Source: Rusavskia elegans
Taxonomy: Eukaryota; Ascomycota; Lecanoromycetes; Teloschistales; Teloschistaceae
Direction: 5' to 3'
Assembly (NCBI GenBank): GCA_011316305.1
Contig: SAUG01000067.1
Location: 434,001 to 498,000, forward strand
DNA: 64,000 bases
A program made the translations under genes and the position numbers. Shown one piece after another: positions 1,346 through 50,600 of the stretch; the stretch's first letter is position 1; every line of letters starts with the position of its first letter. The notes below the pieces were generated by a model. That model did not search any database. It was not told the DNA's origin and was given only the letters and a program-made list of their open reading frames with translations.

Positions 1346-1465
1346 CTAGTGTTGAAAGGTTTGCAGCAGGTTCTAAGCGTGGGATCGTCCTACTTTCGTA
1401 CTTACTGGCTGAGAAGTTCTGAGGTACCGGGGAAACCAGTTCCGTTACAATTGTGGGCTCGATAA

Positions 1466-18905: not shown

Positions 18906-21151
18906 TATATTACTATAGTATCAATATAACTATATAGTAAAAATAGAGATATTTAAATATCGTAATATAATAAAAAAAGATTTTAGCGGTTTTAATAAAT
19001 TAAATCCGGATTTCTAGATTTAATCCGATTCGGATTAGATCGAACTATTTTTTAATTCGATTCGAATTAAATCGAATTCGCTTTTTACGTCTATGACTAT
19101 ACAAAAGTACCAGCGCTAGATTGATCAAACGAGAAACTAATTAGCGTAGGACCGCGTTAGCCGTAAAGGCCGCTTTTATAAACCGATAATTAATATCTAT
19201 AGTTACTTTCGGCTTTAGCGATTATTTTTATATATATATACTATTTTTTATTTCTATTAAATAGTTTTTTTATTAGTTGTTAATATAATTATTAAATATC
19301 GTTCTATTCCTCTTCTATAATTATCTACGTAATAAAGACGTCTCGTAATATTAAAATCTTATCTCTACGGTTAAATAGGACTAGTTTCGATAATCTATAC
19401 TAGGATTCCTTTACTATTTAATAGCTTTAACTACGCCTACGGCTATAGCTAGGCTCGAGCGTAACGTCTTCTGATATATAGAGATATTATATTTTAATAA
19501 CTCCGAAAAATAGATAAAAATCGAATTTTTATCTAACTAACGTTATTCGGATAATCTGTAGAAATATTAGTTAATTTAAAAGCTACTAGAAATATTATAT
19601 TAGAAAAATATATAAAAAAATTCGATATTTCTATAATAAAAAGAACGAGACTTTATTTTATAGATATAAATAATAATATAAAAGCTACTAAAATCTAAAT
19701 ATAAACTAAAATCCTTTAGATACGAAGCGATAGATATAAAGAAAAAATCGTTTTCGATATTATAAAAATGTATAGAGATATCTATCTAAATATTCTATAG
19801 CTAATAAACTAGAATCTAAAAATAAAATAGATATTAATATAAATAAAGATAGCAAGCAATCTAATTACTATACCTAAAAAATTAGCCGAAATAAAAAAAA
19901 TTACGATTTCTTTATTCGGAAATAATTAACTACGGATAAAGTAGCTACTATATACGAAGTTCTATAATTATTTAAAAGCTTCTATAAAATATCAATAAAA
20001 TCGAAAGAAAAATTACCTTTACTAATTTATATTTAGAGAAACTACGAAGTTATTATTATAGAACCAAAAAAGTTAAAAGTTAAACTAATATATAGATTAA
20101 AGAATAAATAATCGAAATTATTAAAGAAATATATCTATTATAATTTTAGACGAAAATATATATACTATTCTAAATTATAAATAGAATAATCTATTATATT
20201 TATTCCGAAAAAAAATTGTAATTTTCGGCTTTACGTTAACTACAGAAAACTGAATATAGTAATATAAAAAGATCAATATTCTTTTTTCTTTTTAGTAGAT
20301 TTAAAAAGTCGAATAGAAAAAGCTAAATATTTTATAAAATTTAATTTAAAAGACGCCTTTAATTTTCTAAAGATAAAAAAAGGAGATAATTAGAAAATAG
20401 TATTTAGAACTAAATATAGACTATTCGAATATCTAGTAATATCTTTTAAATTAATAATTACATTCCTAAAGTTATAATACGCGGTTGATAAAATATTATA
20501 TAACTATTTTATTATCTTCGTAATAGTATTTATAGACGATATACTAATATTTTTGGAATTATAAAAAGAATATAAATAGTATATTATTGAAATACTATAA
20601 AGATTTTAAGAATATTATCTAAAAGTAAAAGAAAAAAAATCAAAATCCTTTAAAAAAGAAACGATATTTTTAGAATTTATAATAAAATCAAGGAATATTA
20701 AAATAAAAGTAAATAAACTTCGAATATTTAAAAAATAGCTGACGTCTAAAAATAAATTAAAATATCGAAAATTTTCTAAAATTTATAGATTTCTACTAAA
20801 ATATAATAGAAAAATATATAAAAAAAAGTTATTCTTTTAATAGATTTACTATAAAAAGATAAAATATTTTAATAGACGAGGATCGAAAATAACGCTTTTA
20901 AAAAACTAAAGTAAAGTTTCGTAAATAAAAACGTTTTAGAAATTTTCGATCTAAATAAATAAAAAATACTATATATAAACGCTTTAAACCGAACGTTGGA
21001 ATCGTATATAATATAAAAAAATAAATCTTTAGACTATTATTTAGAAAAGTTAACTTTTATAGAAATTAATTATATAATAATAAATAAAGAAATATTAGTA
21101 ATCGTAATAAACTTTAAATATTAGAAAATCTATATAAAAGAAACGTTTAGT

Positions 21152-21692
21152 TAAATTGACTATTTCGGGTCGGATTTCTATCGGTTTTCTAAAAACCTGA
21201 TCCGAATTTTAGTAAATCTGTTCGACCCGATATACTAAATAGTATAAATTAGTTTCTAAAATTAAAACCGAAAGTTCGGTCGGATTATAAAATAAAAATT
21301 AATAGAAATTTTATCCGATTTGTTAAACCTTCGATATATAGTATAATATTAAAATTTATATTATATTTTTTAATATATATACTAGTATATTACTATAGTT
21401 AATAAAAAATATAAAATCAAAAAAGATAATATATATAGGTAATCTATTTACTCTAACTAAATTAATTTTAAACTAGTAGATATAATATTTATACTAGTAT
21501 TATATTTTTATACTAGATTTCAGCGATTTTAGCAGGTGGAATCCGGAAATCCGGATTTAATTCGGAACTAAATTAGTTCGGTATTTAGAAAAATCGGAAC
21601 CGACTTGGTTCGGTATCTAAAAAAGTCGGAACCGATTCGAATCGAATCGGTTTTTCTAATTCGGATTCGAAATTCGATCCGACGATCAGTCT
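21152..21692 (+). repeat. MITE copy nested in subfamily B pol
   Basis: About 540 bp from AATTGACTATTTCGGGTCGG to CGATCCGACGATCAGTCT; inverted ends as in the other copies. It lies inside the RNase H coding part and is immediately followed by repeat D2. Confidence 0.7.
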
Positions 21693-21699
21693 ACGTTTA

Positions 21700-22595
21700 A
21701 TTAATTTATTTTGGTTTTAGTATCCGATAAACCAGTGATTCGGTAAGTAAATCAAACGTTGGTATACTAATATTAAATATACGGTAGTAAATTCTTTACT
21801 CTAGTTTAATTAACGTAAATAACGGTTCTATAGAATTTAAATTTAAAAAAGCTTAGTAATATAACGTATTCTTCTACCGATAATTTAATATAGAAACCGT
21901 TACAGATAAATATATCTTGCAGTTATCGCTTCTTTTTATTTTTTTACTGATAATATAAATCTAACAACTTTTACGTATATATATACTTCTATATCAGCTA
22001 TAGCTATAAGCTAAACGAGACGGTAATATATCCGTAATAACTATATCTATCTATATGGTCGTCGACTATTCTATTATAGCTAAAGTAACCTATTTCGACT
22101 TTAATTTAAATCTTTTTTTTATCGTTTTTAAAATACGCTATCCGACTTCTCTACCCTTTTTTAATCTAACCGATCGGGTAAAACTTCTAGCCGTAGTAGC
22201 TAGTATACTATCTAGTAATCTTTTTAAAGTTAAATAGATTAAAAAGAATTTTAATAGTTTAGTAGAACGTTTAGATACGAGTTATATAATAAATACTGTC
22301 GAGGCGATAATTATAGATAATTATTTCGCAGTATAGCAAATAGATATAGCGGAAATATTAGATATTTATAGTTATTACAATATCGAAAAAGGACTAGATA
22401 GTAGAAGATTCGTAATCGCGAATAAAAAGGAAATAGTTAAATAGAAGTGATTAACTGCGCTGTAAATCTTGCCTGACGAACTTTGGCTATAAAAATTTCT
22501 TTATACGTAAATATAATAATCGTTGCCGTATATAACGATGATGAAATATATATATATATATATAAATTCAATATAATTTCTAATAGAAACTTTCC
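21700..22595 (+). repeat. Repeat D, copy D2, nested in subfamily B pol
   Basis: Starts TTAATTTATTTTGGTTTTAG and ends after the (TA)n run at 22,546-22,563. It carries the D reading frame including a short ATG-started stretch at 22,055-22,237 (VVDYSIIAKVTYFDF, LTDRVKLLAVVASIL). The host pol resumes at about 22,605. AAAGAAACGTT on the left and AAAGAGACGTT on the right flank the combined MITE plus D2 insertion. Confidence 0.65.
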
Positions 22596-24579
22596 AAAAA
22601 AAATAAAAGAGACGTTAAAGAAAATAGTAGTTTATACTAGCTATAAAAATCTTCTTTCCCTTTTAATAGATAAAGAATTAAACCAAAGATAATAAAAATA
22701 GATAAAAGAAATAATATATAACGATTTCGAAATAAAATATATTAAAGATATAGATAATACTATTATAGATATTTTAAATAACTGGATAGATTATAAAGCA
22801 GCAAAAAAAAAACGAATAAGTTTTTATTAAAAAGAAACGGAAATATTTTAAAAAAGATAAAAGTTTTTGAAAATATTAATAACATTATTAGATAAATGTA
22901 TAATTCTAGAATAATAGAATATTAGAATATTATAAAAATACTAAAAAGAAGTCAAAATTAGACTAATATACCGATATTTATTAAATATATCGATAAATAT
23001 AAAAAAGAACTATCTAGATTATATAATAGTAAAAAGAATTTATAGAATCCGGTTAGAAAATTATAATCGTTATAGATATTAGATTATCTCTATTAGCAGA
23101 TTATTATAGATTCTATTATAGATTTGCCGGAATTAATAAATCCGTCGATATAAATCTCGTACGATATAAATCTCGTACGATATAATTATAACGATAGTAG
23201 ATAGATTTATAAAATACGTAAAGTTTATTCTATATAAAATAATAATAATGATAGAATAATTAGCGTATTTACTACTAAAGATAGTATTTTATAGAAATAG
23301 TATTTTAGAAAAAATTATATCGGACAGAGATAAACTTTTTATTTCTAAATTTATAAAAGATTTTATTTAAATATTAAAAATAGAATAAATAATATTAACT
23401 TTATTCCATTTTTAAATAGATAGCTAAATTAAAAGAATAAATCAAATATTAGAAATTCATCTAAGAATCTACCATTTTGAAAAAAGAGAAAATTAAATCG
23501 AGTTTTTTTCGATAATATAGATAACAATTAACTCGTTATATAATGAAGATATCCAAACTATTCTATACGAGTGATTATATAGTAAAACGCTAAAGCGAAA
23601 AATCGAAGTAAATATAAAAAACTCAGCTATCTAAACGTTTATAAATAAAAAAAAATAATTAAAAAAAAATAAAAGTAAGAATCTAGAAAGTAAAAAAAAA
23701 GATAAAAGAAAAGATAAACAGATCCAAACGATAATATAATATTAAAAAAGAAAATAAAATACTTTTATCTATAAAAAACCTTATAGAAAGAAAATTAGAT
23801 CAACTATATATAGAAACGTTAGAAATAGAAAATATTAAAAATATAATAGTTCTTTTAAAATATCTAGCTATAGAAATTTTTCTAAAATTTTATATAAAAT
23901 TTTTTAAAAAAGTATATACTCGAATACTATTAGTAGAATATTAGTATAATTGAATCGAGAAAAAATATAAAGTCGAGAAAATAATCGACGAAAAAAAATA
24001 GACTAACAAATTCCTAGTTAAATAGAAAGAATTTCCCGATAAAAAAAATATTTAGAAACCGAAAAAATATCTAAAAAAATATATAGAAAGCTTTAAAGAT
24101 ATTTAGAAAAACGTTATAAAAAAGGCCGTATTACGTCTATAATTAAATAAAAGTACTAGCGCTAGATTAGCTAGACGAGAAACTATTTAACGTAGAGCCG
24201 CGCTTGCCGTAAAAGCCGTTTTTATAAGCCGATACTAAATATCTACGGCTATCTTCGGCTAAAACGGCTACTTTTATCTAATTATATCGCTCTTTAGTTC
24301 TATTAAATGATTTTTTAATTAATCGTTAATATAATTATTAAATATCGCCCTGTTTCTCTTTAATAATTATATATATAACGAAAATTATTTATAATATCGA
24401 AACCTTATCTCTATAGCTATATAGGACTAGTTTCGATAATCTATACTAGAATTCCTTTACTATTTAATAGCTTTGACTACGTCTACGGCTATAGTTAGGC
24501 TCGAACGTAAAGTCTTTTGATATATAGAAACGTTATATAGCTAATTTGGATTCGAAATTCGATTCGACGGCCAGTTTAA

Positions 24580-26825: not shown

Positions 26826-26830
26826 GCTAG

Positions 26831-29800
26831 TATTACGTCCACGATTCCACAGAGGTTCTCTGAAAGATTAGTTAGACAAGCGAATCCAATTATCTATAGC
26901 CGCCTATAGCCGCTATAGCCGCCTCTTCTAATAGGATTTTTAGTAGACGGCTATCTATCGGCTTTTACAGCTACTTTTACTATATATATCGCTTATTACT
27001 CCTATAAATAGTTTTTTTTATTAGTTATTAATATAATTATAAAATACGTATCTACTATTCTCTTTTTAATTATTTTATAACGAAAATACCTTATAATATT
27101 ATAACCGTACTTCTATAGGTATATAGAATTAATTATAATAATCTATACTAGGATTTCTTTACTATTTAGTAGCTTGGACTATATCTACGACTATAGCTAG
27201 GCTCGAGCGTTATACCCTCTAATATATAGAGACGTTATATTTTAACAACTCCGGAAAATAGATAAAAATCGGATTTTTATTTAACTAATATTATTTAGAC
27301 GACCTATAGAAGCTTTAGTTAATTTAGAAACTGTTCGAAATATTATATTAAAAGAATATATAAAGAGATTTAATATCCTTTTAATAAGGAAAACAGAACC
27401 TTATTTTATAGAAACTATTAATAAAATAGAATTTATTAGAATCGAATATTAGACTAAACCTCTATAGATACGAAGTAATAGATATAAAAAATAGATTATA
27501 TTTAATATTATAAAGATATAAAGGGATATATATTTAGATATTCTATAATTTATATTATAGAATCTAGAGATTATTTAGAAAACGATACGGGTAAAAATAG
27601 AAAACTACCTTTTTAGTATACCTAAAAGGCTAGCCGAGATATAGAAAATATATAATATCTTTATTCGGAAATAGTAAATTAAAAAGGAACTAGCTACTAT
27701 AGACGAAATTCTATAACTTTTTAGAAAATTCTAGGACGTATTAAAGGAACCGGAAGGAAAATTACCCTTATTAACTTATATCTAGAAAAACTACGAGATT
27801 ATTATAACGGACCCGAAAAAGCTAAAAGCTAGACTAATCTATAGATTAAATAATAACTAGTTAAAGATATTAAAATAATATATTAACTATAATTTTAAAA
27901 GAAGATATATATAATATTCTAAATTAAAGATATAATAATCGGTTATATTTATTTCTAAAAAAAAAATAACTTTCGATTCTATATTAATTTTAGAAAACTT
28001 AATATAGTAATATAAAAAGATAAATATCTACTTCCGCTTTTAATAGATTTAAAAAGTAGAATTAGAAGAACCAAGTTTTTTATAAAACTTAACCTAAGAG
28101 ACGTATTTAACCTACTATAAATTAAGTACGGAAATAAGTAGAAAACCGCGTTTAAAACGAAATACGGACTATTTAAATACTTGGTTATATCTTTTAGACT
28201 AATAAATATACCGGCGACCTTATAACGCGCTATTAATAAAATATTATATAAATATCTTAATATCTTTATTATTATATATATAGATAATATATTAATTTCT
28301 ACTAAAATAAAAAAAAAATTTATATAATATATTTATAAAATATTATAAAAATTCCGAAAATATAATTTTAGAATTAAAAAAGAAAAGTCGGAATTTTATA
28401 AATAGAAAGTTATATTTCTTAGATATATAATTAAACCGGGAAGTATTACTATAAAAGTTAATAAATTATAAATAATACGTAAATAGCCGGTACTAAAAAA
28501 TAAAAAGGATATTTAAAATTTTCTAGAATTTATAGAGTTTTATTAAAATATAATAGAAGGATATATAAAAAAAATAGTCTCGTTTATAGATTTATTCCGG
28601 AATAATATAACCTTCTAATAGATATATATCTAGAACGAAGTATTTAAAAAATTTAAATAGAATTTCGCGTCCGAAAAAGCTTTAGCGATCTTCGATTCTA
28701 AAAAATAGATTATTTTTTATATAGATATTTCGGACCGAATAATAGGATTATATATTTTCTAGAAAAAAAAACTACTCGAATACTATTCTAGAAAATTAAT
28801 ACTAGTAAAGGTTAACTATATAATAATAGATAAAGAGATACTAGTAATCGTTATAAACTTTATATACTAGAAGATATATATAAGTAGAACTAACCAGAAA
28901 GTAGTAGTATATACTAACTATAAAAATCTCTTATCTTTATTAGTTAATAAAGAACTTAATTAATAATAAATAAAATAGGCAGAAGAAATAATTTACTATA
29001 ACTTTAAAATAAAATATATTAAAGGTACTAATAATACGGTCGTAGATACTTTAAATAGAAAAGCAGATTACGAAGCTATTAAAAAAATATCCAGATCTCT
29101 TTTAAAAAAAATAGAAGATATCTTTAAAAAAGCTAAAGCTTTAAAAGAAATAAATAAAATAATTCGGCAAGTATACGATTCTAGGATAGCAGGATATTAG
29201 AAAATTATAAAAATACTAAAAAGAATTTAAAAAAAGACTAATATACTAGTTTTTAAAAAATATATTAAAGAATTTATTAAAAACTACCCGGAATATATAA
29301 TAGTAAAGAAAAATTATTAGAAGCTAGTTAAAAAATACCAGCTAATATAAATACCGAATATATTTTATTAATAGATTATATTAGACTTCGTTATAAAATT
29401 ACTAGATTTAATCGATCTATATATTTAGATATTATAAAATATAATAATAATAATTAATAATAGATTTATAAAATATATTAGATTTATATTCTATAAAATA
29501 ATAATAACGGAGAAATAGCTCGTCTTTTTACTATTAAAAACGGTATTTTACGAAAATAGAATTATAGAAAAAATTATTTCTAATAGAAATAAGTTATTTA
29601 TTTTAAACTTTATAAAAGGACTAATAGAAACGGTAGAAACGGAATAAACTATATTAATATCGTTCTATCTATAAACGAATAGATAAATAGAAAGAATAAA
29701 TCAGACTTTAGAAACCTACTTTAGAATCTACTATTCGGACGAAGGAAAGGACTAAATTTAATTTCTTCCGACGGTATAAATAGTAATTAATTTATCTTAT

Positions 29801-30798
29801 AATAAAGACGTAAAAATAACGCCTAACGAGTTATATTATAGTAAGACTATCCGGAAAGAAGTATATTTAGATATAAAAAACCCGGCGGCGCAGTCTTTTA
29901 TTAATAAAATAAAAAATAACTAGAATAAAATAAAGGCAAGAATTTAAATAGTAAAAGAAAAAATTAAATAGAGGTTAGATAAGTTAAGAAATTAATATAA
30001 TATTAATAAAAGAGATAAAGTATTACTTTTAATAAAAATTTTAATAGATAGGAAGCTCGATAAACTATATATAGGAGCTTTCGAAATTTAAAATATTAAA
30101 GAAATAATAGTATATTTTAAGTTCCTATTAATAGATATTTTCCCTAAATTCTATATAGGGTTACTAAAAAAAGTACCGGAATATATTCTACTAGCGAAAG
30201 ATTAATACTATTAAAAGTATAAAGAATATAAAGTTAAAAAGATTCTAGATAGAAGAAAAGAAACGGATAAATTCCTAGTAAAATAGAAAGGGTTTTCTAA
30301 TAAAAAAAATACCTGAAAATTAAAAAAATACTTTAAATACGTTTAAAGAGCTTTAAAAAAATTTAGAAAAACGATATAAAAGGGCCTATATTATATCCAT
30401 AACTCTATAAAGGTTCTCTAGAAAATTAGTTAGATAAACGAGTCTAATTATCTATAGCCGCCTATAGCCGCTATAGCCGCCCCTTCTAATAGAATTTTTA
30501 ATAGATAGCTACCTATCGGTCTTTATAGCTACTCTTACTATATATATCGCTTATTACTCCTATAGATAGTTTCTCTCGTTAGTCGTTAATATAATTATTA
30601 AATACGTATCTACTATTTTCTTCTTAATTATTTTTATAATAAAAATACTTTATAATATCGTAACCGTATCTCTGCGGGTATATAGGATTAGTTATAATAA
30701 TCTATACTAAAACTCCCTTACTATTTAGTAGCTCGAACTACGTCTATAGCTATAGCTAGGCTCGAACGTAACGCCCTCTGATATACAGGGACGTTACA
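26831..30798 (+). mobile_element. Family A LTR retrotransposon, copy A2 (pol-only, complete)
   Basis: 3,968 bp, LTRs 26,831-27,239 and 30,389-30,798. The 5-bp duplication GCTAG is perfect (26,826-26,830 and 30,799-30,803). The polypurine tract AAAAGGGCC (30,379-30,387) precedes the 3' LTR. Same length as copy A1 to the base. It inserted into the 3' region of the chromovirus, separating the antisense ORF from pol. Confidence 0.92.
27240..30388 (+). pseudogene. Ty3/Gypsy pol remnant of copy A2
   Basis: Order along the + strand: protease site at about 27,312-27,350 (ALVNLETVRNIILKEYIKRF; the Asp of the site is Asn by RIP); reverse transcriptase at 28,100-28,220 (VFNLL, TAFKTKYGLFKYLVI) with catalytic YIDN at about 28,277-28,288 replacing a Tyr-x-Asp-Asp; RNase H at 28,840-29,080; integrase core first Asp at about 29,460 (IIIINNRFIKY, Asn for Asp); chromodomain at 30,225-30,350 (KVKKILDRRKETDKFLVK, then KGFSNKKNT, the Trp being TAG). 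Distance from LTR end to protease is about 80 nt, so Gag was never there in this copy. Confidence 0.85.
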
Positions 30799-30803
30799 GC
30801 TAG

Positions 30804-33800
30804 TCGATAATTTTTTTAATTCCTTTTAATAGAACTATTATAGAGCCTTTTAGTAGTTTACTAAATATTTTTTAGATTTCTAAATATTTTCCGAAATAGG
30901 ATAACCTTTCTATTTAATTAAATAGTTCTAATTTTTCTATTATAGGATCTTTTCGACTATAAAAGTATTTTCCTTTTATATTTCGAAATTAAATATCTAT
31001 TATAACGGCGTTCCGGGATCGGTTAATTCTAAAAGAAATATATAAAATATCGGGTATATTTTTATATCTTTAGATAGATTAAATTTAAAATTCTAAAATC
31101 CTTTAATTTTCCTAATTAAAAATTGTCCGATTTTAATATAATTAAGTTTTTTATAAAAAGATATACTTTATTTTCTTTCTTTAACTAAAGTATTATTTTT
31201 TATTTCTTATTCTAATATTTATCCGAATATTTTTATTTTTTTAGAATATTTCTATAGATTTTTTTTTAAATATCGACTTTTTTAATTATTAATTCTGCTA
31301 ATTTATATAGTAGCGGTCGCCTAAATAGATTCGGATTTCTTCTATTATCGGTATAGAACGGTATTTTTTTATTATACTGGATTCGTTTATATTAAGTACT
31401 ATTTATACTATTAGTAAATACGAAATCTAATTATTCTAAATATCGTTAATATAATACCTTAGATATTATTCGAGCGTCTAGTTAGTATATTCTATCTATT
31501 TATCTATTATCGGATAGAAAACTTTTAATATTTTTAGTTTAATACTAAATAGAAGAATAAAGGTTTTTTAATAGTTTAAAGTAAAGAGTTTATTTTTATT
31601 ATTTATTAATATCTCTAGCAGTCTATAGTATCGAAATAATCGATCTAGGATAACGAATCTAAATTATTTTACTATAAAGTTTTCTTTTAATAGAATTACG
31701 TAGATATATTTTATAAGTCTATCTATTATATTAAATATCGAATCGTATTCTATATTTATCGTCGGGTCTTTTAATTTTAAGAGCTTAATAATAAAGTCTA
31801 ATATAATTTCTTTCTATAGTAAATCCGGTAGTTTCTAATACTAGATCTTTCTATAACGAGTATATATACAATATTTATTTTACTAATAACTAAAATATTT
31901 TTTAATATATATCTAGACGTATTACTTTATATTAGGAAACTGGTAATACTATTATAAAAGTTATATTATTTTTATTATATCTAAATACCTTTATAGTATT
32001 CTATCGTAGTATTTCTTAATATATTTATTAATTTTATCGTCTAGTATTTAAAGTTTTTCTTTTCCGATAGGAAATTATTTCTAGTTATCTCGAAGTATAT
32101 ATAGCGTTATATTTATTTTATACTAATTTACTAATAGTAATCTATTTCTATTAACTTTAAAAATACTATTACTAAAAACTTCTTTTATTTTTATATAATT
32201 ACTTTTTCGATTTAAAATATCTACTCTGCTATTTTCTTTATCTAAAATATAGTATATTTTAAATTTATACTAACCGAAGAATTTAGACTATCGTATTTAT
32301 TTTTTATTAAATTAGTTTATTATTACAAAGTATAAAAGATTCTCATAATCTATAAAAATTATTATTTCTAGTAATCTTTCGGCGTATATTCTCTACTATT
32401 CTAGTATAATTACTATAGCTAGTAGTTCTTTATTATAGATATCGTAATTCTATTCCGCTAGCGATAATTTTCTAGATATATATACTACTAGATACTATTT
32501 ACTATTATATTATTATAGAAGGTATATTTCTATAGCTAGATTTAACGAATCCGTTTCTATATATAATAGTTTTCTAGAATTAAATATTTTAAATACTAGG
32601 TCTTTTATATATTTTCTCTTAAAATCTTTAAATCTTTATTATTTTTTCTCTTTCTATTATTATTCGGTAGTATCTTTTATTAAAACTATTAGAACGAGAG
32701 CTCTTTTAAAATAATTTTTTATAAATTTTTAATTATAGTTTATAAATTCGAAGAAACTTTAGATTTTTTTAATATTTATTAGTCTTTTCTACTCTATAAT
32801 AGCTTTTAGTTTACTAGAGTCGATATATAATCTATTTCGCTCTATAATAAATTCTAGAAAATTAACTTTTTTTTTATAGAATTTATAATTTTCTAGTTTA
32901 AGATATAAATCTTTTTTTTTTAGATATTTAAGAATTTTACTAACGTATTACTTATATTCTTCGAATATTTTAGAAAAAACCAAAATATCGTCGAGGTAGG
33001 CGATAATAAATATATCGAGATATTTTCTAAATATATTATTAATTATATTATAATAAATTACCGGGGTATTTATAAATCTAAAAGGTATTATTAAATATTT
33101 ATAATAACTATACCGTATTCGGAAAGCTATTTTTTAATTTTTTTCGATTTTTATTTATATAAAGTTATATATTCTCCGAAGGTCGAGTTTTATAAAATAT
33201 CTCGCTCTAGAAAATCTATTTTAAAGTTCGTTAATATTTAATAGTAGATATCGGTTTTTAATTATAATATCGTTTAGTTTCCGGTAATTAATATATAAAT
33301 AAAATATTCCGTCCTTTTTAGATATAAAACGAATCGGGTATTCTACTAGTAATTAAAATTTTCTAATAAATCTCTTTTTTATATTTTTATCTAGATATTT
33401 ACGGAGTATTTCGAGCTCTATTATAGATAATAGATAGATAAGTCTAAACGTAGATTATTTACCTAGTTTAAATCTGACTTTATAATCCTATATTTAATAT
33501 TTAAATAGTATTTTTATTGTTACTTCTTCCTAAAATAAATTTATCTAATTTTTATATTTATCTAGAATCTTTTCTAATAGATTTTCTTTTAATTTATTAG
33601 ATAGTATAGAGTTTTCGAAAGGTTCGTAATTCTCTTTTTTATTTCTATTTTATTAATCTAGCTAACCTCTACCGGTATCTAATAAATCGGACCTAAATAG
33701 TTTTTAGTTATTCTTTTTCGAAATTATAAGTTTATACTTTATATTCTACTTTTTATCTATCCGAGATTACTATTTCGGCGTAGACTAGATACTTTCTATA

Positions 33801-35981
33801 TAGGAATATTATTTAAAGTTAAATACTTTTTTTTTCTAGTCTACTACTAGATTATAATCCTTTAATTAAAGTATTTTAAATACGATATTATAGCTAGCTA
33901 TCCGAATAATATCGAACTAAAGTTTTTTTTAATACTAGTTAATTATTATTTAGAACGGTATTATTTCTTCTATAATTTTTCTATTTCTATTCGGTATTTT
34001 ATTTCTATTAATAACTATTAGATTATATAGGTCTTCTTTTTTAGTCCGAAGAAACCTTTTTCTTTTAGCTAAATCTTCTAATACGAAATTTCCGGTTATA
34101 TCTAAAATAATAAATATTTTAACTTTCTATAGTCTATTATTAGTTTCGATAATTATTTTAATCTTAAATATATATATATAGCTAGCTAAATTTAGTTATT
34201 ATTTCCGGGTTATAAAGTTATACGCTCGTAGTATATCTATTATTATAAGATTTTAACTTTTTTCGAATCGTTTCTAATATTTTTGTATTTTCTATCTTTA
34301 TAGTTTACCTGCGAAATATATCTATAGAAATTCTAATTAAAAATTCTATTTCTTTTTTATTATTTTTTCTAGTATTCGTATTTACTATAGATAATATATC
34401 TAGGATAGTCGTAAGTATTATAACTTCCGATTTTAATAGATATTATAGAAATACGTCGGTATAGTTTTAATAGATACTATTCGGCTTCTTTCTTTTTTAA
34501 TTTATTAATTCTATAGTCGTTATTATAATAAGCGATCTAATTTAATAGTATATATTAGTTTTCTATTATTACGTATTACTATTATAATATTAGTTTAAAA
34601 ATATCTTTATTTTTAGAAGCGTTACTTCCTAGTTTCTTTTCTAATATATCGACGATATTATTTACTTTCTAATCCTACTAATCGTTCTATAGATATTTAT
34701 TATCGATATATATTTTATAAGTATTTTTAAATCTTTTATAGATTACTATAAATCCTTTCTTTACTAGTTCTTTATTATAAAAAGCTTAAAGGTATACCAG
34801 TTTAACGTTTTCTATTATTATAATCTCCTATCTAGAAACGGCTTTCTTTCTAGTAGATATTATTAATATTTATAGTAAAATATTATTTATTATAGCTTCC
34901 TATAGTATTTTATCGTTTTCTATAAATATAAATTCTTTATTTAATTTGGCTTTCTAGGGTTTAGAACTACTATTATTATCTTCTAAGATTATTTTTTACT
35001 AGTTTTTAGGTTTCTTTAGTATAGCGTTAAACTGTCGTTATTATATTTTATTTAATTAATATTCTTTCGCGAAATAGTTTAGTTTATTATAGTTATAGTA
35101 CGTTTTAGGATTTTTATTCCTTTTATTACTTCTAGGGTTTTTCCTTTTATATCGTAGTTATATAGAGTCTAATTCTATAGATATAGGTCTGTAGTAGCTA
35201 TTTCCGGTCCTTTTATTTAATAGCTCTTTTCTATATAGCTTTCTAGAATAATATCCCGCGTTAACTCGTAGTTTTCTATTATAGAATTTTTTTATATCTC
35301 GTTTATATAGTTTATTATCGAAGTCGATAGATATTTTAATTAGATTATCTAAGGTTTCGTATATTCGACTGTCGTATATAAATTCGTCTTTTATTCGCTT
35401 TTTTAGTCTTTATCTATATATTACGTATAAGGTATCGTTATTCTATTTTATTAGTAGTAACTATTCCTTAAACTATACGGCGTATTTCGATACTATAATT
35501 TTCTACTAAAAGTATTAGATAATATATTTAATAATTAGAATTTTATTCGAAATTCCGAAAATATTATAAATAGCTTTCTTAAATTATATAAACTATATAA
35601 AGTTATATTTATCGTCTTCTTCGTCGTCTATATATTAGCGCAGGAAAGGTTTTATCTAGTACTAGGCTCGTCTTCGAAGATAGAATATAGTAAAAAGGGT
35701 TTTCTTTTTTTTAAATATAGAATAGAATATAAAATATATATCTAATTATACGAGCTAATCTTCTAATTTATTTCGATTCCTATAGTATTTATCGGGCTTA
35801 TTAACTTTAATACTATAGTTACGGTAACTAGTAGTAGGAATACTAACTTTTTTATTACTACTATTATTTTTTATCTAGATTTCTTTACCTTTAGGTTCGG
35901 ACTTTTTTACTATAGAGCTAGAATTACTTAGAATAAGGATTTAATATTAACCTGCGATAGATATTTTAAAGATATTTAAAG
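30804..35981 (-). pseudogene. Chromovirus Gag-pol remnant
   Basis: On the minus strand: the Gag zinc knuckle at about 35,052-35,100 reads YYNYNKLNYFAKEY, i.e. every Cys and the His of a CX2CX4HX4C box turned to Tyr, and the Gly to Asn, all G-to-A or C-to-T changes. Reverse transcriptase at about 32,980-33,110 keeps FIIAYLDDILVFSK with an intact YLDD (32,997-33,008). RNase H and integrase follow downward. A chromodomain at 30,850-30,960 reads KGYPISENI after a Trp-to-stop change. The element therefore had the standard fungal chromovirus layout. Confidence 0.85.
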
Positions 35982-36254
35982 TATTATAGAGCTACCTAGA
36001 GGTCCGGGTATTTTTAAAGGTTAGTTAAACTTATTAGTATATCTATAAACGGAGGTATAATAGGTAATTACTTTAAATTAATATAAAAATAAGTTAATTT
36101 GATTATAAGAATAGTATATAGCGATAACTAATAAATAAAATACGAGCTATAAAGGCGTCGAGTTCGGAATCTATATAGATAATAAAATCTTTTACTATTT
36201 AGGTTATTTATTAACTAAAATAACTAAAATAGCTTTATCTTAGAGTATTTACTT

Positions 36255-36392
36255 ACTAAAACTACTAAATTAGAGTATTTATAGTATTTATTTACTAAAA
36301 TTACTAAAATTAAAGTATTTATAGTATTTATTTACTAAAACTTCTAAAATTAGAATATTTATAGTATTTATTTACTAAAACTACTGAAATAC
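36255..36392. repeat. 40-bp tandem repeats in the 5' LTR of the chromovirus
   Basis: Counterpart of the array at 26,065-26,203: units start at 36,255, 36,294 and 36,334 with a partial fourth. The first unit is 39 bp. Confidence 0.75.
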
Positions 36393-36879
36393 TCTTTAGT
36401 ACTAATATTAAAGCCGTCCTGCGTATTTTTACCTGTCGAAGCGTAATAGGAAATCCTGCGTTATACTGAATACTATCGCGTTTCCGAAGGCACGCCGCCT
36501 ATATTTATAATATATAGCTATTATAAAAAATATATACGTACGTAAAAGATACTGGTAAATTATAATATCTACGAAAAGTTTATATTACTAGTAAAAGAAT
36601 AAGAAAAAAAAACGATAACTACAAAGTAAATTTATCTATAAAAAATTCTACGTCAATTAAAATATAGATAAATGAATCCGCTATTCTATTAAATAAATCT
36701 AAATTAAAATTTTAAAAATTCGTTATTTATTTTATTTAAATTAAAATATAAAATCTATAATTATATATTCGATACTAATATACTAACTATTAATCTACTA
36801 ACCGAACTACTATTTTATCGGATATTAATTTCTAAAAAAAATATTAAAATAAATTAACAAAATAAATAGTAATAGATTT

Positions 36880-37190
36880 AAAATTTAAGTAATCGCGATT
36901 TCTATAAACGTCAAACGCGTTATATAAATCTTGGAGATATAATTAAAACGCTTGAAAACGAAACTCGCCGTCTAGTCGCTACCGCGTTACTAGCGTATCG
37001 GATTTCGATTTTTTTCTACTTTTTCTCTTCTTTTATTACTAGATTATATTCTAGTTTCTTTGGAATATAAATTAGTTCTATAATATATCTTTTATCTAGT
37101 CTATAATCGTATACTATTATAGAAATACTATTATTTTTATAGTTTTACTTTATTATTATTACCGTTATTGGTCTAGTAAATATTATATAT
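36880..37190 (+). repeat. Repeat G, first copy
   Basis: Matches 53,030-53,290 (shared CGTCTAATCGCTACTA-type block and CTAGTCTATAATCGTATACTAT). Both copies precede Gypsy family C sequence in the same orientation, so it may be family C's 5' LTR or leader; no matching 3' copy was found. Confidence 0.5.
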
Positions 37191-37389
37191 AGTATAATTA
37201 TATTAACGTCGACGCGTAGTATTTATAGTAATTAGATCCGTACTAAAGTATTTTAGATAAAACTACTTTAAACTAGCGCTAGAGTAACCGAAGATAATAA
37301 TACGCTTCGAAGCCCGCGGATTATAGATATTATAGACTAATCTCACGAATACGCCTCGCCTATACTATCGATATCTAATTAAAAAAAAC

Positions 37390-38060
37390 CATGGTTTATT
37401 TTTTATAGTTTAGAAAAGTTAATCGGAATTCTATTGGAATTTTATTACTAGTATATTAGAAGATTCTACTGTTTCCGGGGGCTAAATCTATTAATAGTCA
37501 CTATTTAATAGTTAGTTTATCAGCAAAAATACAATCCGCTCATAGTATTTTAAAATGAAAAAAACGTTCAGAGTCGATTGAATCGGTTTAAACCGGTTTG
37601 AATCGGTATATCTTGTTTAGTAAACAGAAAAGTTAAGCTATATTCTAAAAACGTCTGATTTAACTATATTTCGAATTTTAAAATTAAACTTTTTAGAATT
37701 TAGTGCTCGTTAGTTCTCGTTTAATAACGGGAAGCCTCTAGTTTAAAAATTAGTAACGCTAGCGTTTTATAAATAAAATTTTTGAAATCTACGCTAAAAG
37801 TTTACTATTATAGTTATATTATAGACTATTTATAGCTCTATTAGATCGAAAGACTTAGAGTTTTTTAAAGGTTTTATTTTAAAAATTTCAAAACTCGTTT
37901 AAAGCTCTCAGAGCGCTTTAAGCTAAAATCTTGCTTATAAGCAGGCCTTCTGCTCGTGAACGTTTTTATTACGCGCTAGACAGATTATAGAATCAGACCC
38001 GCTTACCAGTTCAAACCTGCTCAATTAACTCTGGACGGGATCGACACTTTTGATGATATT
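37390..38060. other. Low-RIP island without recognised gene
   Basis: CpA and TpG are common again here (for example AAGCAGGCCTTCTGCTCGTGAACG region at 37,940-37,963, split here only as a location) and base composition is clearly more balanced than on either side. It holds two palindromes, AAACCATGGTTT (37,387-37,398) and CGGTTTAAACCG (37,584-37,595). No open frame of note and no second copy in the window. Confidence 0.5.
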
Positions 38061-39582
38061 ATAGTTTAATAGAAGTATCTTTTTAGAAATTTATCTAGAT
38101 TAACTATCTAGTAGTAATAATTCGAAGAATTTAAATAATAGTAGAGATAATAGTAATAATTCCGATAATAATAAAAAGCGTCGAATCTTAAAGGCTTAAA
38201 TAATAGCAAAAAAGAAAATTCTTTTAAAAATATATCGTAAAGTAGAAGCTTTCCGTATAATAGATATAAATTATATTTTAGATAATAATTGACTTTTTTT
38301 AGACTAGCTACTAGATGTTCGCGAGCGCCGTAAACTTTATTAAAGTTTAAAATTAAAAAGTCTAAAAAGTATAGTAATAAAATATCTTTTAAAAAGTATT
38401 ATAAATAGGTCGAGTTTTATAGAAATTAGTTCTATAAATCCGACGCTTTATTTATCTATACGGATTAAATTCGATATACCTAGAATTTTAATAAAAGTTA
38501 GAAATTAAACTATTAATTCGAATAGAAAAAATCCTTTATCGAAAAAAATACTTTTAACGATATATTATAAAATAAATTTATAGATTTTCTTTTAAATATT
38601 ACTACTAATTCTACGTTTTATTTATTAAATATCGCGACGAAATACCTTCGTATAATATAGAATAAAGACTAGAGTATTCTAGAATTCTATAATCTTTTTG
38701 TATTATTAAAAGCCTAATTATTTCTATTATCGAAAAAATAGTATTCGATTTTTTTTTTTAAAAATTTATCTAGAATTATAGTATACTATACGTGTTCAAA
38801 ACGCGAAATTAAAAGATTTCGGCTATAATAAATAGATAGTTTAAACTATCTAATAGAAAAATATAGATAAAACGATACTAGATTAATAGTAGAATTTTTC
38901 TACTAAAAACTCTAATCTATTTCTATATAGTAAAAGAAATTTTTAAAATTTTAAAAACCGGAACCGAGAAAATCGATTATAGAGTAATTAAAATAGCGTT
39001 AGTAGAAAGAATATTTCTAACGTTAATAATAACGATTCGAGAAAATATAAATAGAATAATAAATCTAGTATATATTATTAATATAGTAATATTGATTATT
39101 ATTCTAAAAGTTTTTTCTAGAACTAGAATTTAAATTAAAATAATTAAAAATTAAATAACTTTTATAGTAACGTGTTACGTCCACGACTCTATAGAGGTTC
39201 CTTGGAAGAATTCGCTAGGCAAGCGAGTCTAATTATCTATAGCCGCGTATAGCCGCTATAGCCGCCCTTCCTAATAGGACTTTTAGTAGACGGCTATCTA
39301 TCGACCTTTATAGCTACTTTTACTATATATATTGCTTATTATTTCTATAGATGGATTCTTTTATTAGTCGTTAATATAATTATTAAATACGTTTCTACTA
39401 TTCTTTTCTTAATTATTTTATATTAAAAATACCTTATAATATTTTAACCGTATTTCTATAGCTATATAGAATTAGTTATAATAATCTATACTAGAATTTC
39501 TTTACTATTTAGTAGCTCGGACTACGTCTATAGCTATAGCTAGGCTCGAACGTAATATCCTCTAATATATAGGGACGTTATA

Positions 39583-40600
39583 TTTTAATAATTTACTATA
39601 TTAGTTTTATTATCCCGACCTATAGATCGAAGCGATACTATAAAAGTAGTAATACCTAATATCTATAAAGGAAATAAAAGATCTTTAAAGCTATAAATTA
39701 TTTAGATAAGTATCTACTTTATATTATATATAAACTAGTCTTTAAACGAAGTAGTTAAAATTCTATTTATAATATTATATCTAGGAAAGGCTGCCTTTAA
39801 TTAGGTATAGCCTCGAATAGAAAATTACCTCGATAACTCGGAAGGATAGAAAGAAGATAAAATATTATAGATCTTTTATACTTTCGGTAATCTTATTATA
39901 GCTATAAAAGAAGCCTTTAGAGATACTAATAAAAATAGGGTAATAGGTAGAAAATTAATAGTTCTAAAGTAGTAAAAATTAGTAGCTATCTACGCTATTT
40001 AGTTTAGAAAGTTAGTTTATAAAATAGACTAGGAAGATTTAGCTCTAAAAGTTTACTTCTATAAAAAATTCTAGATAAAAATTAAAGAAACTATAGCGGT
40101 AATTAAAGAACCGGATTTACTAGTAGATTTTATTAAATTTATAATAAAAATCGATATTAGATAGTATAAAATATCTTTAGATAAATAGACGCTTAATAAA
40201 ATAGAACCTATTAAAAAAAAGTCTAGAAAAAATCTAATAGAACTCGATACTACCGAAACTAAAGAATTAAAAACTAAAGCTTATTATTTATATAGAAAGA
40301 TAAAATACCTTAAAAAGAATTATCTAACTAAAGAAGTAATAAAAATAACCGAATATTTTTTTAAAATAATAGAAAAATTATCTAATAAATATATAGTAAA
40401 AAGCTGGTTAGTTTACTATAATAGTATTTATCCTATCTACCTATTAGATAAAGAGAGGATAGGATATTATTCTAAAAAATCTAAAAAAGTATAGAAAATA
40501 AAACTAATAATCGATTTTAAACTATATAAAACCGAAAGATCCTTTATAATAATATTTAACGTTAAAATCGGAGGTTAATAAATAATAGCTTTTATAAATA
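39583..40600 (+). pseudogene. Gag remnant with zinc knuckle
   Basis: On the + strand the reading contains a Gag capsid-like stretch at about 39,740-39,980 (VKILFIILYLGKAAFN, PRIENYLDNSEG, FGNLIIAIKEAFRDTNKN), which matches the usual Ty3/Gypsy Gag region rich in Phe/Asn/Trp followed by a conserved Phe-Gly block. At about 40,280-40,325 YYLYRKIKYLKKNY is a CX2CX4HX4C knuckle whose Cys and His codons were changed to Tyr by RIP. Gag would assemble the particle that packages the RNA; here it is nonfunctional through many stops. Confidence 0.75.
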
Positions 40601-42080
40601 GAGAGGAAGATAATAAAGTTATAAAAGGATTCTATAATAAAATTAAAAGATATTTCTATAAAAAAATAATAAATAATAATAGAATTCTCGATATTAAAAT
40701 TAAAATAAAATATAAATAGATTAGAATATTAAATTTTACTATAATCGAAAGTTAAAAAAGTTATATTATTTTAGGAAACGAATAGAAAGAATCTATATTA
40801 AAAAGATTAATAAAAAAAAGTACCGTCGATAAAAAAATAAAACTATAAATAATATATCTTCTAGCCTATAAAAATCTCTTATAAAAAAAATAGACGTTAT
40901 TTTAATAATAAATTATAAAGAGATTAAAAATTTAGATAAAAAATTTAAAGAAGATAGAAAAATTTAGGAAATAAAAATTTAGTAGAAATACTATTATTTT
41001 CTCTAATAATTTATTAAAAAATATAATAAAAGTAAAAAAATAATCTAGTAGCTTTAAATAAACTATATTAAAAAAATATACTAGAATATAATTAAAACTA
41101 TAGATAAAATCGAATACTATAAACTAAATTAAATAGATTAGAATAAAGAAATACCGGACCTAGTATTTAGTATTAAATTTAGAAATAAAGAATTCGATTA
41201 GTATCCGTCTTTATTATTATAGAACGAAATAGTAGCTAAAGAATAAAATTTAGTAGAACTATTAAAGAAACCGGAAAAAATTTATAATATAGATATATAA
41301 TCCGAAATATATAAAGATAGTAATAAAAAAGCTTTTTACTAGATCTTTTTTAGAATTTTATAATTTCTATAGATTAAAAAAAGTTAAAATCTTTTAAAAT
41401 TTAATCCAGATTACTCGAACTAAATCTAGGTATTAATTTAATAGATATCTCTTATATAGCTAGCGTAAAATTAATAGAAAAGTAAAATATAACCGGATTA
41501 TTAAATTTATTAAATCGAGAAAGTACGCGTTACTTCTAAACGATAAGATTACTTTTATACTTATCTAAAACGCGATAATAAGTAATAAAATATTTTTATT
41601 TACTAAAAAGTCGGCGGAAATCTAATTTCTAGACTAAATATTTATTACGAATTTCTCTTTTAGAATTAGAGAAGGACTTAATATAATAGCGAGCTTCGGA
41701 ATATTTATTAAAAATATCTACGATATTAGAACGAAGTTTATTTTTTTTATTTTTAAGATATTTCCCTGCGGGAATTAATAGAAATAATAAAAATAAAAGA
41801 AATAATATATAGATAGTATTAGATATTAGAAAATTATATAATTTTTAAGCCCGAGTATATTTATTATAAATACTACTACTAATTTCAACTTTATATTCTT
41901 TTAAAGAATTATAGATATATAAAAAATAAGGAAAAAATATTATAATTCCTTTTAACTAGATATAATAAAAAGATTTTAGTCGATATCCTTTTTAAGAATA
42001 TATAATAAAGATATTAACGAAAAGAAAAAAAAAGAGATCTTTTTTATACCCTGTATACGGTTTTTACGCTAGGTAAAAAG
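40601..42080 (+). pseudogene. Second coding block of unknown identity in the Gag-bearing element
   Basis: Downstream of the zinc knuckle the frames still read as coding: REEDNKVIKGFYNKIKRYF near 40,600, then PDLVFSIKFRNKEFD near 41,157, KKPEKIYNIDI near 41,270, and a C-terminal part near 41,935-42,085 (KKYYNSF, LDIIKRF, SISFLRIYNKDINEKKKK, FFIPCIRFLR). Stops sit mainly where Gln or Trp codons are expected. There are no pol motifs. It might be the Gag C-terminus, a second structural protein or captured host sequence. Confidence 0.45.
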
Positions 42081-42507
42081 CGATATAGAGAGGACCGTAT
42101 TATATCTATAATTCTATAGAGGTTCTCTAGAAAAATTAGCTAGGTAAACGAGTCTAATTATCTATAGCCGCGTATAGCCGCTATAGCTACCTTTTCTAAT
42201 AGGACTTTTAGTAGACGGCTATTTATCGGCCTTTATAGTTACTTTTATTATATATATTACTTATTGATCCTATAGATAGATTCTCTCGTTAGTTATTAAT
42301 ATAATTATTAAATACGTCTTTACTATTTTTTTTTTAATTATTTTATAACGAAGATATTTTATAATATTATAACTATACCTCTGCGGCTATATAGAATTAG
42401 TTACGATAATCTATATTAGGATTCTCTTACTATTTAGTAGCTCGGACTACGTCTACGGCTATAGCTAGGCTCGAACGTAACGTCTTTTGATATACAGAAA
42501 CGTTATA

Positions 42508-47656: not shown

Positions 47657-50600
47657 TGTAACGTTCCTATATATCAGAAAGCGTTACGCTCGAGCCTAGC
47701 TATAGCCGTAGACGTAGTCCGAGCTATTAAATAGTAAGGAAGTTCTAGTATAGATTATTATAACTAATTCTATATATCTATAGAAATATATTTACGATAT
47801 TATAAAGTATTTTTATTATAAAGTAATTAAAAAGAGAATAGTAGAAACGTATTTAATAATTATATTAATAATTAACGGGATAATCTATTTATAGAAGTAA
47901 TAAGTAATATATATAGTAAGAATAGCTATAAAGGCCGATAGATAGCCGTCTACTAAAAGTTCCGTTAAAAAGGGCGGCTATAGCGGCTATAGGCGGCTAT
48001 AGATAATTAGATTCGCTTATTTAACTAATCTTTCTAGGAAACTTCTATAGAGTTATAAATATAATATAGTCCTTTCTATATCGCTTTTCTAAACCTTTTT
48101 AGGGCTTTTTAAATATATTTAAAGTATTTTCTTAGTTTCTAAATCTTTTTTTTATCGGGAAACTCTTTCTATTTTACTAGGAATTCGTCTATCTCTTTTC
48201 TTTTATCTAGAATCTTTTCGACTTCGTATTTTTCTTACTTTTAATAGTACTAGTCCTTTACTAATAGAATATATTCCGGTACTTTCTTTAGTAAATCTAT
48301 ATAGAATTTAGAGAAGATTTCTATTATTAAAAGTTTTAAGTATATTATTATTCCTTTAATATTTTAAATTTCGAAAGCTTTTACGTATAGTTTATCGAGC
48401 TTTTTATCTATTAAAGTTTTTATTAAAAGTAGTATTTTATCTCTTTTATAAATATTATAATCTTTTTTTAATTTATCTAATTTCTATTTAACTCTTTCTT
48501 TTATTATCTAGATTTTTATTTTTACTTTATTTTAGTTAACCTTTATTTTATTAATAAAAGACTACGCCGTAGGGTTTTTTATATTTAAATATATTTTTCT
48601 CCGAATAGTCTTTTTATAAAATAGTTCGTTAAACGTTATTTAGATATCCTTATTATATAATAAATTAATTACTATCTATACTACCGGGAGAAGTTAAATC
48701 TAGTCTTTTCCTTCGTCTAAATAATAGATTTTAAGGTAAGTTTCTAGTATCTAATTTATTCTTTCTATTTATTTATCTATCTATAGATAGAACGATATTA
48801 ATATAGCCTATTCCGTTCCTACTACTTATATTAATTCTTTTATAAAATTTAAAATAAATAATTTATTTCTATCCGAAATAATCTTTTTTATAATATTATT
48901 TTCGTAAAATACCGTTTATAGTAATAGAAAGGCGAGCTATTCTACTATTATCGTTATTTTATATAGTATAAACCTTATATATTTTATAAATCTATTAATA
49001 ATTATTATTATTATATCGTATAATACTTATATACAAGGGTTAACCGATTCTAATAATCTTATAACGAAGTCTAATATAATTTATTAATAAAATATATTTA
49101 GTATTTATATTAGCTAGAGTTTTTCTACTAGTTTCTAATAACTTTTTTTTACTATTATATACTCCGGGTAGTTTTTAATAAATTTTTTAATATATTTTTT
49201 AAGTACTAGTAGATTAGTTTTCTTTTAAATTCTTTTTAATATTTTAGTAATTTTTTAATATCTAGCTATTTTAGGATCGTATATTTATTAGATAATATTA
49301 TTTATTTTTTCCGAGGCCTCGGCCCTTTTAAAGATATTTTCTATTCTTTTTAAAAGAGGTCTGGTCGTTTTTTCGGTAGCTTCGTAGTCTACTTTTCTAT
49401 TTAAAGTATCCGCTATAATATTATCGGTACCTTTAATATATTTTATTTTGAAATTATAATAGATTATTTTTTCCGTTTACTTTATTATTTAGTAAAGATA
49501 GAAGATTTTTATAGTTAGTATATACTACTACTTTTTTATTAGTTCCGCTTATATATATTTTCTAATATATAAAATTTATAATAATTATTAATATTTTTTT
49601 ATCTATTATTATATAGTTAACTTCCGTTAATATTAACTTTCTAGAATAGTATCCAAGTAGTTTTCTTTTTTAGAAAATATATAATTCTATCGTTCGGTCT
49701 AAAATATTTATATAAAAGATAATCTATTTTTCGAAATCGAAAATTACTAAGATTTTTTTAGACGCGAAACTCTATTTAAGTCTTTTAAATATTTCATTTT
49801 AAATTTTTATCTACTAGAAAGATATATTATTCCGAAATAAATCTATAAATAGAACTATCTTTTTTATAGATCCTCCTATTATATTTTAGTAGAACCCGGT
49901 AAAATCTAAAAAACTTTAAATATCTTTTTAATTTTTTAGTACCGGCTATTTTCGTATTATTTATATTTTATTTATCTCTATAGTAATACTTCCAGGCTTA
50001 ATTATATATCCTAGAAACGTAACCTTTTATTTATAGAATTCTGATTTCTTTTTTTTAATTCTAAAGTTATATTTTCGGAATTTTTATAATATTTTAAAAA
50101 TATATTATATATATTCTTTTTTTATTTTAGAAAAAATTAGTATATCGTCTATATATATTATTATAAAGATATCGAAATAGTTATATAATATTTTATTAAC
50201 TATATATTATAGAATCGCCGGTATATTTATTAATCTAAAAGATATAACTAAATATTCGAATAGTCTATATTTTATTTTAAACGTAATTTTCTATTCGTTT
50301 TCGGCTTTAATCTATAGTAGATTAAATATATTTTTTAAATTAAATTTTATAAAAAACTTGGTTTTTCCGATTCTGTTTTTTAAATCTACTAGAAGCGGAA
50401 GTAGATATTTATCTTTTTATATTACTATATTAAATTTTTTGAAATCGATATAAAATCGAAAGTTACTATTTTTTTTCGGAATAAATATAACCGGTTATTC
50501 TATTATTAATTTAGAATACTATATATATCTTATTTTAAAATTATAGTCGATATATTATCTTAATACTTTTAACTAATTATTATTTAATCTATAAAATAAT

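What the first reader, a model, noticed from the sequence alone, without database searches (positions are those of the whole stretch)
26831..42507. Candidate two-component LTR retrotransposon: pol-only and gag-only elements sharing one LTR family
Copies at 8,708-12,675, 26,831-30,798 and 47,657-51,603 have 410-bp LTRs and a body that holds only protease to chromodomain. The copy at 39,173-42,507 has LTRs of the same family and length, its own perfect TAACG duplication, a polypurine tract, and a body with Gag (capsid-like block, zinc knuckle) but no pol. Each type has intact-looking boundaries and each transposed as a unit. Partial precedents exist (non-autonomous elements using an autonomous partner, for example Gag-defective BARE2 in barley), but a complementary split of gag and pol over two elements with common LTRs would be unusual. 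In this reading each needs the other, and both need common packaging and priming signals in the LTR and leader.
Basis: partly seen in the sequence, partly recalled or inferred. Interest (0 to 1): 0.88.

Follow-up and report, generated by a model that had tools for sequence, protein, structure and literature searches.

The report
Retrotransposon split into two elements
In this fungus one family of virus-like jumping genes exists as two separate elements with the same ends, one carrying the shell protein and the other the copying enzymes; no copy with both was found, so each probably needed the other to move.

Summary
The window's three pol-type copies and one gag-type copy belong to two high-copy classes: 33 complete interiors of each kind appear among the 40 candidates scored per search. 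Around the 40 best LTR places lie 28 gag-type bodies, 11 pol-type bodies and one solo LTR. No copy with both was seen: of 127 pol places, 4 have a same-strand gag within 7 kb upstream, each with an LTR between.

Besides LTRs, the types share only about 10 nt after the 5' LTR and about 22 nt before the 3' LTR. Their LTRs form one pool with shared polymorphisms. Transversions show codon phase in both bodies, strong in pol, patchy in gag. Stop-free pol-only proteins of 1040 and 1059 aa exist elsewhere. Gag is confirmed by profile. The gag-type also has a conserved frame on the other strand.

Best reading: a bipartite, mutually dependent Ty3/gypsy retrotransposon, heavily RIP-mutated in every copy read. 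Dependence is inferred. Searches were capped, so an unscored autonomous copy is not excluded.

The parts
39173..42507 (+). gag-type element G1; TSD TAACG at 39168-39172 and 42508-42512
39173..39582 (+). 5' LTR of G1 (410 bp)
42098..42507 (+). 3' LTR of G1
39366..39374 (+). LTR stretch complementary to the primer-site stretch (putative RNA start, self-priming)
   Evidence: position; counts
39583..39594 (+). primer-site-like stretch shared by both types
42076..42097 (+). purine-rich stretch before the 3' LTR, shared by both types
39595..40653 (+). Gag: capsid-like part and decayed CCHC knuckle (about 40285-40326, read by eye)
40520..40790 (+). protease-like stretch without D-S/T-G (approximate limits, judged by place and pattern)
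   Evidence: inference
41386..41955 (-). conserved frame on the strand opposite to gag, about 190 codons or more
26831..30798 (+). pol-type element P2; TSD GCTAG at 26826-26830 and 30799-30803
27282..27842 (+). protease region of P2 (approximate)
27959..28421 (+). reverse transcriptase of P2
   Evidence: RVT_1, E 2.5e-12
28694..28985 (+). RNase H of P2
   Evidence: RT_RNaseH, E 6e-9
29147..29309 (+). integrase zinc-finger region of P2 (below Pfam's cut-off)
   Evidence: E 0.0057
30221..30340 (+). chromodomain-like region of P2 (placed by alignment to L056)
8708..12675 (-). pol-type element P1; TSD AAATA
47657..51603 (-). pol-type element P3; duplication imperfect by one letter
19206..24538 (+). 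older pol-type copy with partial LTRs, interrupted by about 1.5 kb at 21138-22618

Best explanation
A two-component (bipartite) Ty3/gypsy chromovirus. The gag-type RNA encodes Gag, a protease-like stretch without the catalytic motif, and, from the other strand, an accessory protein. The pol-type RNA encodes protease, reverse transcriptase, RNase H and integrase with a chromodomain as one frame that begins right after the primer site. Both are transcribed from the same LTR promoter. Gag from one element and enzymes from the other assemble into common particles; both RNAs prime through the same site, probably by self-priming as in Tf1; the same integrase inserts both. Mixed packaging lets LTRs recombine, which keeps one LTR pool. 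Shown: the two architectures, copy numbers as lower bounds, shared termini, intermingled LTRs, codon phase, and nesting of each type in the other. Inferred: co-packaging, trans-complementation, self-priming, mutual dependence.
For: 33 complete bodies of each type among 40 candidates scored. 0 fused copies in 127 pol and 195 gag places; the 4 close same-strand pairs have an LTR between. 40 best LTR places: 28 gag-type, 11 pol-type, 1 solo. All 24 pol copies whose 5' end is held start right after an LTR. Shared sequence is confined to LTR, about 10 nt and about 22 nt. LTR transversion distance 0.017 gag-gag, 0.023 pol-pol, 0.020 between; nearest neighbour of same type 0.480 against 0.508 shuffled; 6 columns polymorphic in both types. 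LTRs less diverged than bodies. Codon phase in pol (10 of 11 windows p<0.01) and in parts of gag. Diverged older copies of both types. Natural pol-only proteins P0003, P0004. PEG10 capsid and Retrotrans_gag matches.
Against: Searches score only the best 40 or 150 of hundreds of candidates, and the LTR sample was chosen by similarity to one pol-type LTR. Gag phase is not significant at 300-900, and in the gag region amino-acid conservation does not exceed that of the opposite strand. Between-type share of LTR variance is slightly above shuffles (0.039 against 0.023; 115 of 1000 reach it), and 8 columns vary only in gag-type, 2 only in pol-type. LTR similarity may owe something to constraint. 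Another gypsy family is present. P0003 and P0004 have an altered RT active-site motif, so they may be decayed too, and their contigs were not seen.
Confidence: 0.65

Rival explanations
1. Both types are deletion derivatives of one autonomous gag-pol element with the same LTRs that is extinct, unassembled or unscored here; both were passengers that it mobilised.
For: Same LTRs, primer-site and 3' stretches. Both bodies hold a protease or protease-like part, as overlapping deletions of one ancestor might leave.
Against: No fused body in 127 pol and 195 gag places or 40 LTR places. Pol kept codon-phase constraint across subfamilies. Older copies of both types exist. Pol-only proteins exist in other sources. 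A common gag-pol ancestor of the pair is likely in any case; the question is whether it was still the driver.
Confidence: 0.2
2. The pol-type used Gag from another, complete gypsy family, and the gag-type was only a passenger or an amplifier of Gag.
For: Another gypsy family is in the genome (23 of 150 RT places; window about 31385-33304), with a weak match of the gag-type Gag at about 35046-35823 (E about 5e-4).
Against: The LTR pool, primer site and 3' stretch are shared between gag-type and pol-type. RT of the other family is only 41-47% identical. Whether that family carries a complete gag-pol was not established here.
Confidence: 0.1
3. The working unit is a tandem LTR-gag-LTR-pol-LTR, and single elements are products of LTR recombination.
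For: One such tandem sharing the middle LTR is on contig C198.
Against: 1 of 127 pol places. 11 of 12 complete single copies have their own perfect 5-bp duplication, so they inserted as single units.
Confidence: 0.03

Closest known systems
RLG_Cereba / RLG_Quinta of einkorn wheat (PMC11302176; passages and section 5 read)
   Same: Two elements sharing LTR parts, primer site and 3' signals; one encodes Gag plus a domain of unknown function and no RT or integrase.
   Different: There the partner Cereba is complete, Gag included. Here the enzyme-bearing element has no gag, and the LTRs are intermingled over their full length.
RLG_Sabrina / RLG_WHAM with RLG_Wilma of wheat (PMC9744471; passages read)
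   Same: Gag-protease elements without RT and integrase, mobilised in trans, called semi-autonomous.
   Different: The partner Wilma is complete, and homology is reduced to a few motifs.
TR-GAG elements of plants (PMC8704663; passages read)
   Same: LTR elements with Gag only; transposition of one shown in Arabidopsis.
   Different: A related potentially autonomous element with a full protein set exists.
BARE2 of barley (seen only in passages of PMC9744471 and in reference lists)
   Same: Pol-bearing element that presumably takes Gag from another element.
   Different: Its gag is disrupted, not absent, and the partner BARE1 is described as supplying Gag as a separate element; no gag-only partner is named in the passages.
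Athila of Arabidopsis (PMC2410132; abstract and passages read)
   Same: Most copies lack pol; some keep Gag frames under purifying selection; recombination between lineages.
   Different: Pol-containing families exist; no reciprocal pol-only class in the passages seen.
Retand elements (PMC11963269; passages read)
   Same: Conserved frames antisense to gag and pol near the 3' LTR.
   Different: Those elements mostly carry gag and pol and a TRP28 domain; no Pfam domain was found here.
Tf1 self-priming elements (recalled; search listing only)
   Same: Primer-site stretch right after the LTR, complementary to an internal LTR stretch where the RNA could begin.
   Different: Tf1 carries gag and pol in one frame (recalled).

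Membership tests
Ty3/gypsy chromovirus | RT, RNase H and integrase of gypsy type in the pol element | tested here: met
   integrase zinc finger weak in the window's own copy, strong in P0002-P0004
Ty3/gypsy chromovirus | C-terminal chromodomain | tested here: met
   L056 E 0.0033, below cut-off; P0003 E 6.3e-9
Ty3/gypsy chromovirus | gag and pol in one element | tested here: not met
Semi-autonomous gag elements (TR-GAG, Quinta, Sabrina) | LTR element encoding Gag but no RT or integrase, in many copies | tested here: met
Semi-autonomous gag elements (TR-GAG, Quinta, Sabrina) | complete autonomous partner with shared ends | tested here: not met
   the only partner found with the same LTRs lacks gag
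Self-priming (Tf1-like) elements | primer site complementary to the RNA start inside the LTR | tested here: inconclusive
   pattern in 29 of 34 gag-type and 24 of 28 pol-type LTRs; 26 of 2000 shuffled LTRs; RNA start not known
Retand-like antisense accessory frame | conserved frame on the opposite strand near the 3' LTR | tested here: met
   no TRP28 or other domain
Bipartite retrotransposon | each RNA moves only with the other's proteins | not testable with these tools
   needs experiment

The most novel reading that the evidence does not exclude
An obligately bipartite LTR retrotransposon: a mobile element whose genome is divided over two separately inserting elements, like a segmented virus, held together by one recombining LTR pool, with catalysis in one partner and capsid plus an opposite-strand accessory protein in the other, stable over several subfamily splits and present in more than one source.
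Probability: 0.55. Interest if true: 0.92.

Novelty: new variant of a known kind. Interest (0 to 1): 0.82.

Why it matters
The semi-autonomous LTR elements that I read about lean on a complete partner. A reciprocal split without one would be a segmented genome in a mobile element. It bears on how cooperation between selfish elements lasts, on whether splitting helps against repeat-targeted silencing such as RIP, and on how segmented viral genomes arise. The shared LTR pool makes co-packaging testable from sequence. My nine literature searches listed no report of such a reciprocal pair; the library lacks most subscription journals.

Tried and rejected
A single odd copy: rejected. Fused copies: the four close same-strand neighbours are a tandem (C198), a nested insertion (C14) and two pairs with separate LTRs (C20, C163). 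Pol remnants in the gag-type 3' half: none among the 60 of 85 matches shown, which were all to the gag-type itself. A sense continuation of gag over the 3' half: codon phase alone allowed it; amino-acid conservation favours the other strand (0.63 +/- 0.21 against -0.11 +/- 0.20; pol controls 0.40 to 1.22 against -0.13 to 0.21; pol rows there held four duplicates). In the gag region the same test does not discriminate (0.02 against 0.04, -0.10 against -0.18). Stop-codon pattern as a strand test: inconclusive. Relatives in viral contigs: none confirmed. Homology of the gag-type protease-like stretch to the pol-type protease by BLASTP: not detected. Identity of the opposite-strand protein: none. 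Host species: not identified.

Counts and dropped rows. One search was given 150 of 150 places, 45 of 57, 15 of 40 and 150 of 150; its 195 gag places may include pieces of one element. The division into 127 family A and 23 other RT places is mine; the identity ranges touch (46-100% and 41-47%). The LTR census took the 40 full-length places and left out 5 weaker partial ones. Searches counted the LTR shared on C198 under both types; one search drops it and replaces their figures. One search's pol set had 28 rows for 24 copies; one search repeats it with 24. One search's 24 gag rows are 22 copies and its 12 pol rows 11. LTRs under 370 nt were dropped, and five older elements were left out of the polymorphism counts. 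Only the first 50 of 150 opposite-strand places were compared with gag places (36 of 50 beside one). P-values are uncorrected.
Full report
Setting. The window lies in a 44.2-Mb assembly of 217 contigs; its RIP pattern points to a filamentous ascomycete (inference). The first 8 kb are genic (about 49% GC); most of the rest is near 20% GC. RIP is heavy: (CpA+TpG)/(ApC+GpT) is 0.07-0.11 in the four elements against 1.21 in the genic part. The comparisons below therefore rest on end-to-end alignment, on transversions (RIP makes transitions), or on natural relatives.

Observation. LTRs are 410 bp and of one family, and ends and duplications agree. Of 12 complete copies (4 gag-type, 8 pol-type), 11 have a perfect 5-bp duplication; the twelfth differs by one letter. 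A fourth, older pol-type copy lies at about 19206-24538.

Genome-wide. With whole interiors as queries, 33 complete gag-type bodies (at least 2505 of 2515 bases; 40 of 616 candidates scored) and 33 complete pol-type bodies (at least 3138 of 3148; 40 of 397 scored) were found, counting the window's own one and two. With natural relative P0001, 150 of 150 scored places matched at 50% identity or more (729 candidates). An RT fragment gave 150 scored places (755 candidates), of which I assign 127 to this family and 23 to another. Merging lists gave 195 gag places; 4 of 127 RT places have a same-strand gag place within 7 kb upstream. On C198 the two elements share the middle LTR; on C14 a gag-type element sits inside a pol-type body; on C20 and C163 each element has its own LTRs. 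Conversely, L057 is a pol-type flanked by gag-type pieces with a perfect duplication. All 24 pol copies whose 5' end I hold start directly after an LTR. Of 36 gag-type entries, 17 have a same-strand 3' LTR right after the body; most others are cut by the locus end, and a few are broken or truncated (L019, L020, the second of L024). From the LTR side, the 40 best full-length LTR places (1403 candidates) border 28 gag-type bodies and 11 pol-type bodies, and 1 is solo; none borders a body with both or a third kind. These LTRs were ranked by similarity to one pol-type LTR.

What the bodies encode. Pol-type: RT, RNase H and a weak integrase zinc-finger match in the window copy; in L056 the whole interior is stop-poor in one frame and weak Chromo and SH3_Tf2-1 matches appear. 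At the protease motif D is present in 7 of 12 rows (11 copies), and the rest of the motif fits D-S-G after RIP-type change (inference). Natural relatives: P0002 (689 aa) has a protease match below Pfam's cut-off (E 1.5e-5); P0003 (1040 aa, 45% identity over 99% of the query) and P0004 (1059 aa, 45% over 98%) are stop-free pol-only proteins with Met near the corresponding start. They carry an altered RT active-site motif, and their contigs could not be read. Gag-type: a profile of P0001 and five copies matches the PEG10 capsid structure 7lga (E 2.7e-4), and 4 of 6 members match Retrotrans_gag (best 1.7e-5). A decayed CCHC knuckle is read by eye. A protease-like stretch follows, judged by place and pattern; D-S/T-G is absent in 24 of 24 rows (22 copies) and in P0001.

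Constraint. Transversion-variable columns by codon position: over 24 pol-type copies, 10 of 11 windows give p<0.01 (for example 48/13/11 at 1500-1800, p=1.5e-8), the exception being 300-600 (p=0.099). Over 32 gag-type copies phase is seen at 0-300 (p=0.035), 900-1200 (0.0018) and 1800-2100 (6.9e-5), but not at 300-600 (0.16), 600-900 (0.65) or 1500-1800 (0.33; 0.0059 with the stricter column rule). Both bodies were kept as protein-coding while subfamilies diverged, much more clearly for pol. In the gag region amino-acid conservation was not above that of the opposite strand, so constraint on Gag is weakly shown.

Frame on the other strand. In the 3' part of the gag-type the phase shifts, and amino-acid conservation at transversion columns favours the minus strand (0.63 +/- 0.21 against -0.11 +/- 0.20). 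A search with this frame gave 150 of 150 scored places (843 candidates); of the first 50, 36 lie beside a listed gag place on the opposite strand and none within 1.5 kb of a family RT place. It resembles in place the antisense frames of Retand (PMC11963269, passages), without a matching domain.

Cis signals and the LTR pool. The types share the LTR, about 10 nt after it and about 22 nt before the 3' LTR; otherwise the DNA of the bodies does not align. The 10-nt stretch is complementary to an LTR stretch near position 192, downstream of a TATA-like run; the pattern is in 29 of 34 gag-type and 24 of 28 pol-type LTRs and in 26 of 2000 shuffled LTRs. This suggests self-priming. Transversion distances are 0.017 within gag-type, 0.023 within pol-type and 0.020 between; the nearest neighbour is of the same type in 0.480 of cases against 0.508 after shuffling (332 of 500 shuffles reach it); no column differs by more than 0.16 in frequency; 6 columns are polymorphic in both types, 8 only in gag-type, 2 only in pol-type, and two gap positions are polymorphic in both. 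Bodies are more diverged than LTRs: between clusters, gag 0.070 and 0.096 with LTR 0.034, pol 0.059 and 0.095 with LTR 0.030. Constraint on LTRs may add to this, but polymorphisms crossing types are best explained by repeated LTR exchange, as expected if both RNAs were copied in the same particles.

Comparison. Gag-only or gag-protease elements with a complete partner are known (PMC11302176, PMC9744471, PMC8704663), and so are selection and recombination in pol-less Athila (PMC2410132). BARE2 has a disrupted gag and presumably uses BARE1's (passage in PMC9744471). Here the enzyme-bearing element has no gag at all. The passages shown of a fungal survey (PMC3248453) mention non-autonomous elements and no such split.

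Verdict. The reciprocal split is real and high-copy within the searched sample. Mutual dependence is the best reading (0.65); an unseen autonomous parent is the main rival (0.2).

Noticed in passing
window 41386-41955 (-): Conserved frame on the strand opposite to gag in the gag-type, without domain or homolog found.
   Followed up: partly
window 19206-24538 (+), insert 21138-22618: Fourth, older pol-type copy with partial LTRs, interrupted by about 1.5 kb of other sequence.
   Followed up: partly
window about 31385-35823 (-): Another gypsy family: INT, RNase H and RT matches at 35-41% identity and a weak gag match at about 35046-35823. Neighbouring LTR places elsewhere also border it.
   Followed up: partly
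window 43853-46105 (+): Further weak RT and integrase matches (34% and 26%), another element family.
   Followed up: no
L022 and L032 (contig C198): Tandem gag-type and pol-type sharing the middle LTR.
   Followed up: yes
L053; L057: Nested insertions: gag-type in a pol-type body and pol-type in a gag-type body, each with a 5-bp duplication.
   Followed up: yes
window 36196-36391: Short tandem repeat, copies 78-84% alike.
   Followed up: no
window 1-8225: GC-rich genic flank with long open frames (for example 731 aa at 6030-8225, minus strand), next to the AT-rich RIP block.
   Followed up: no
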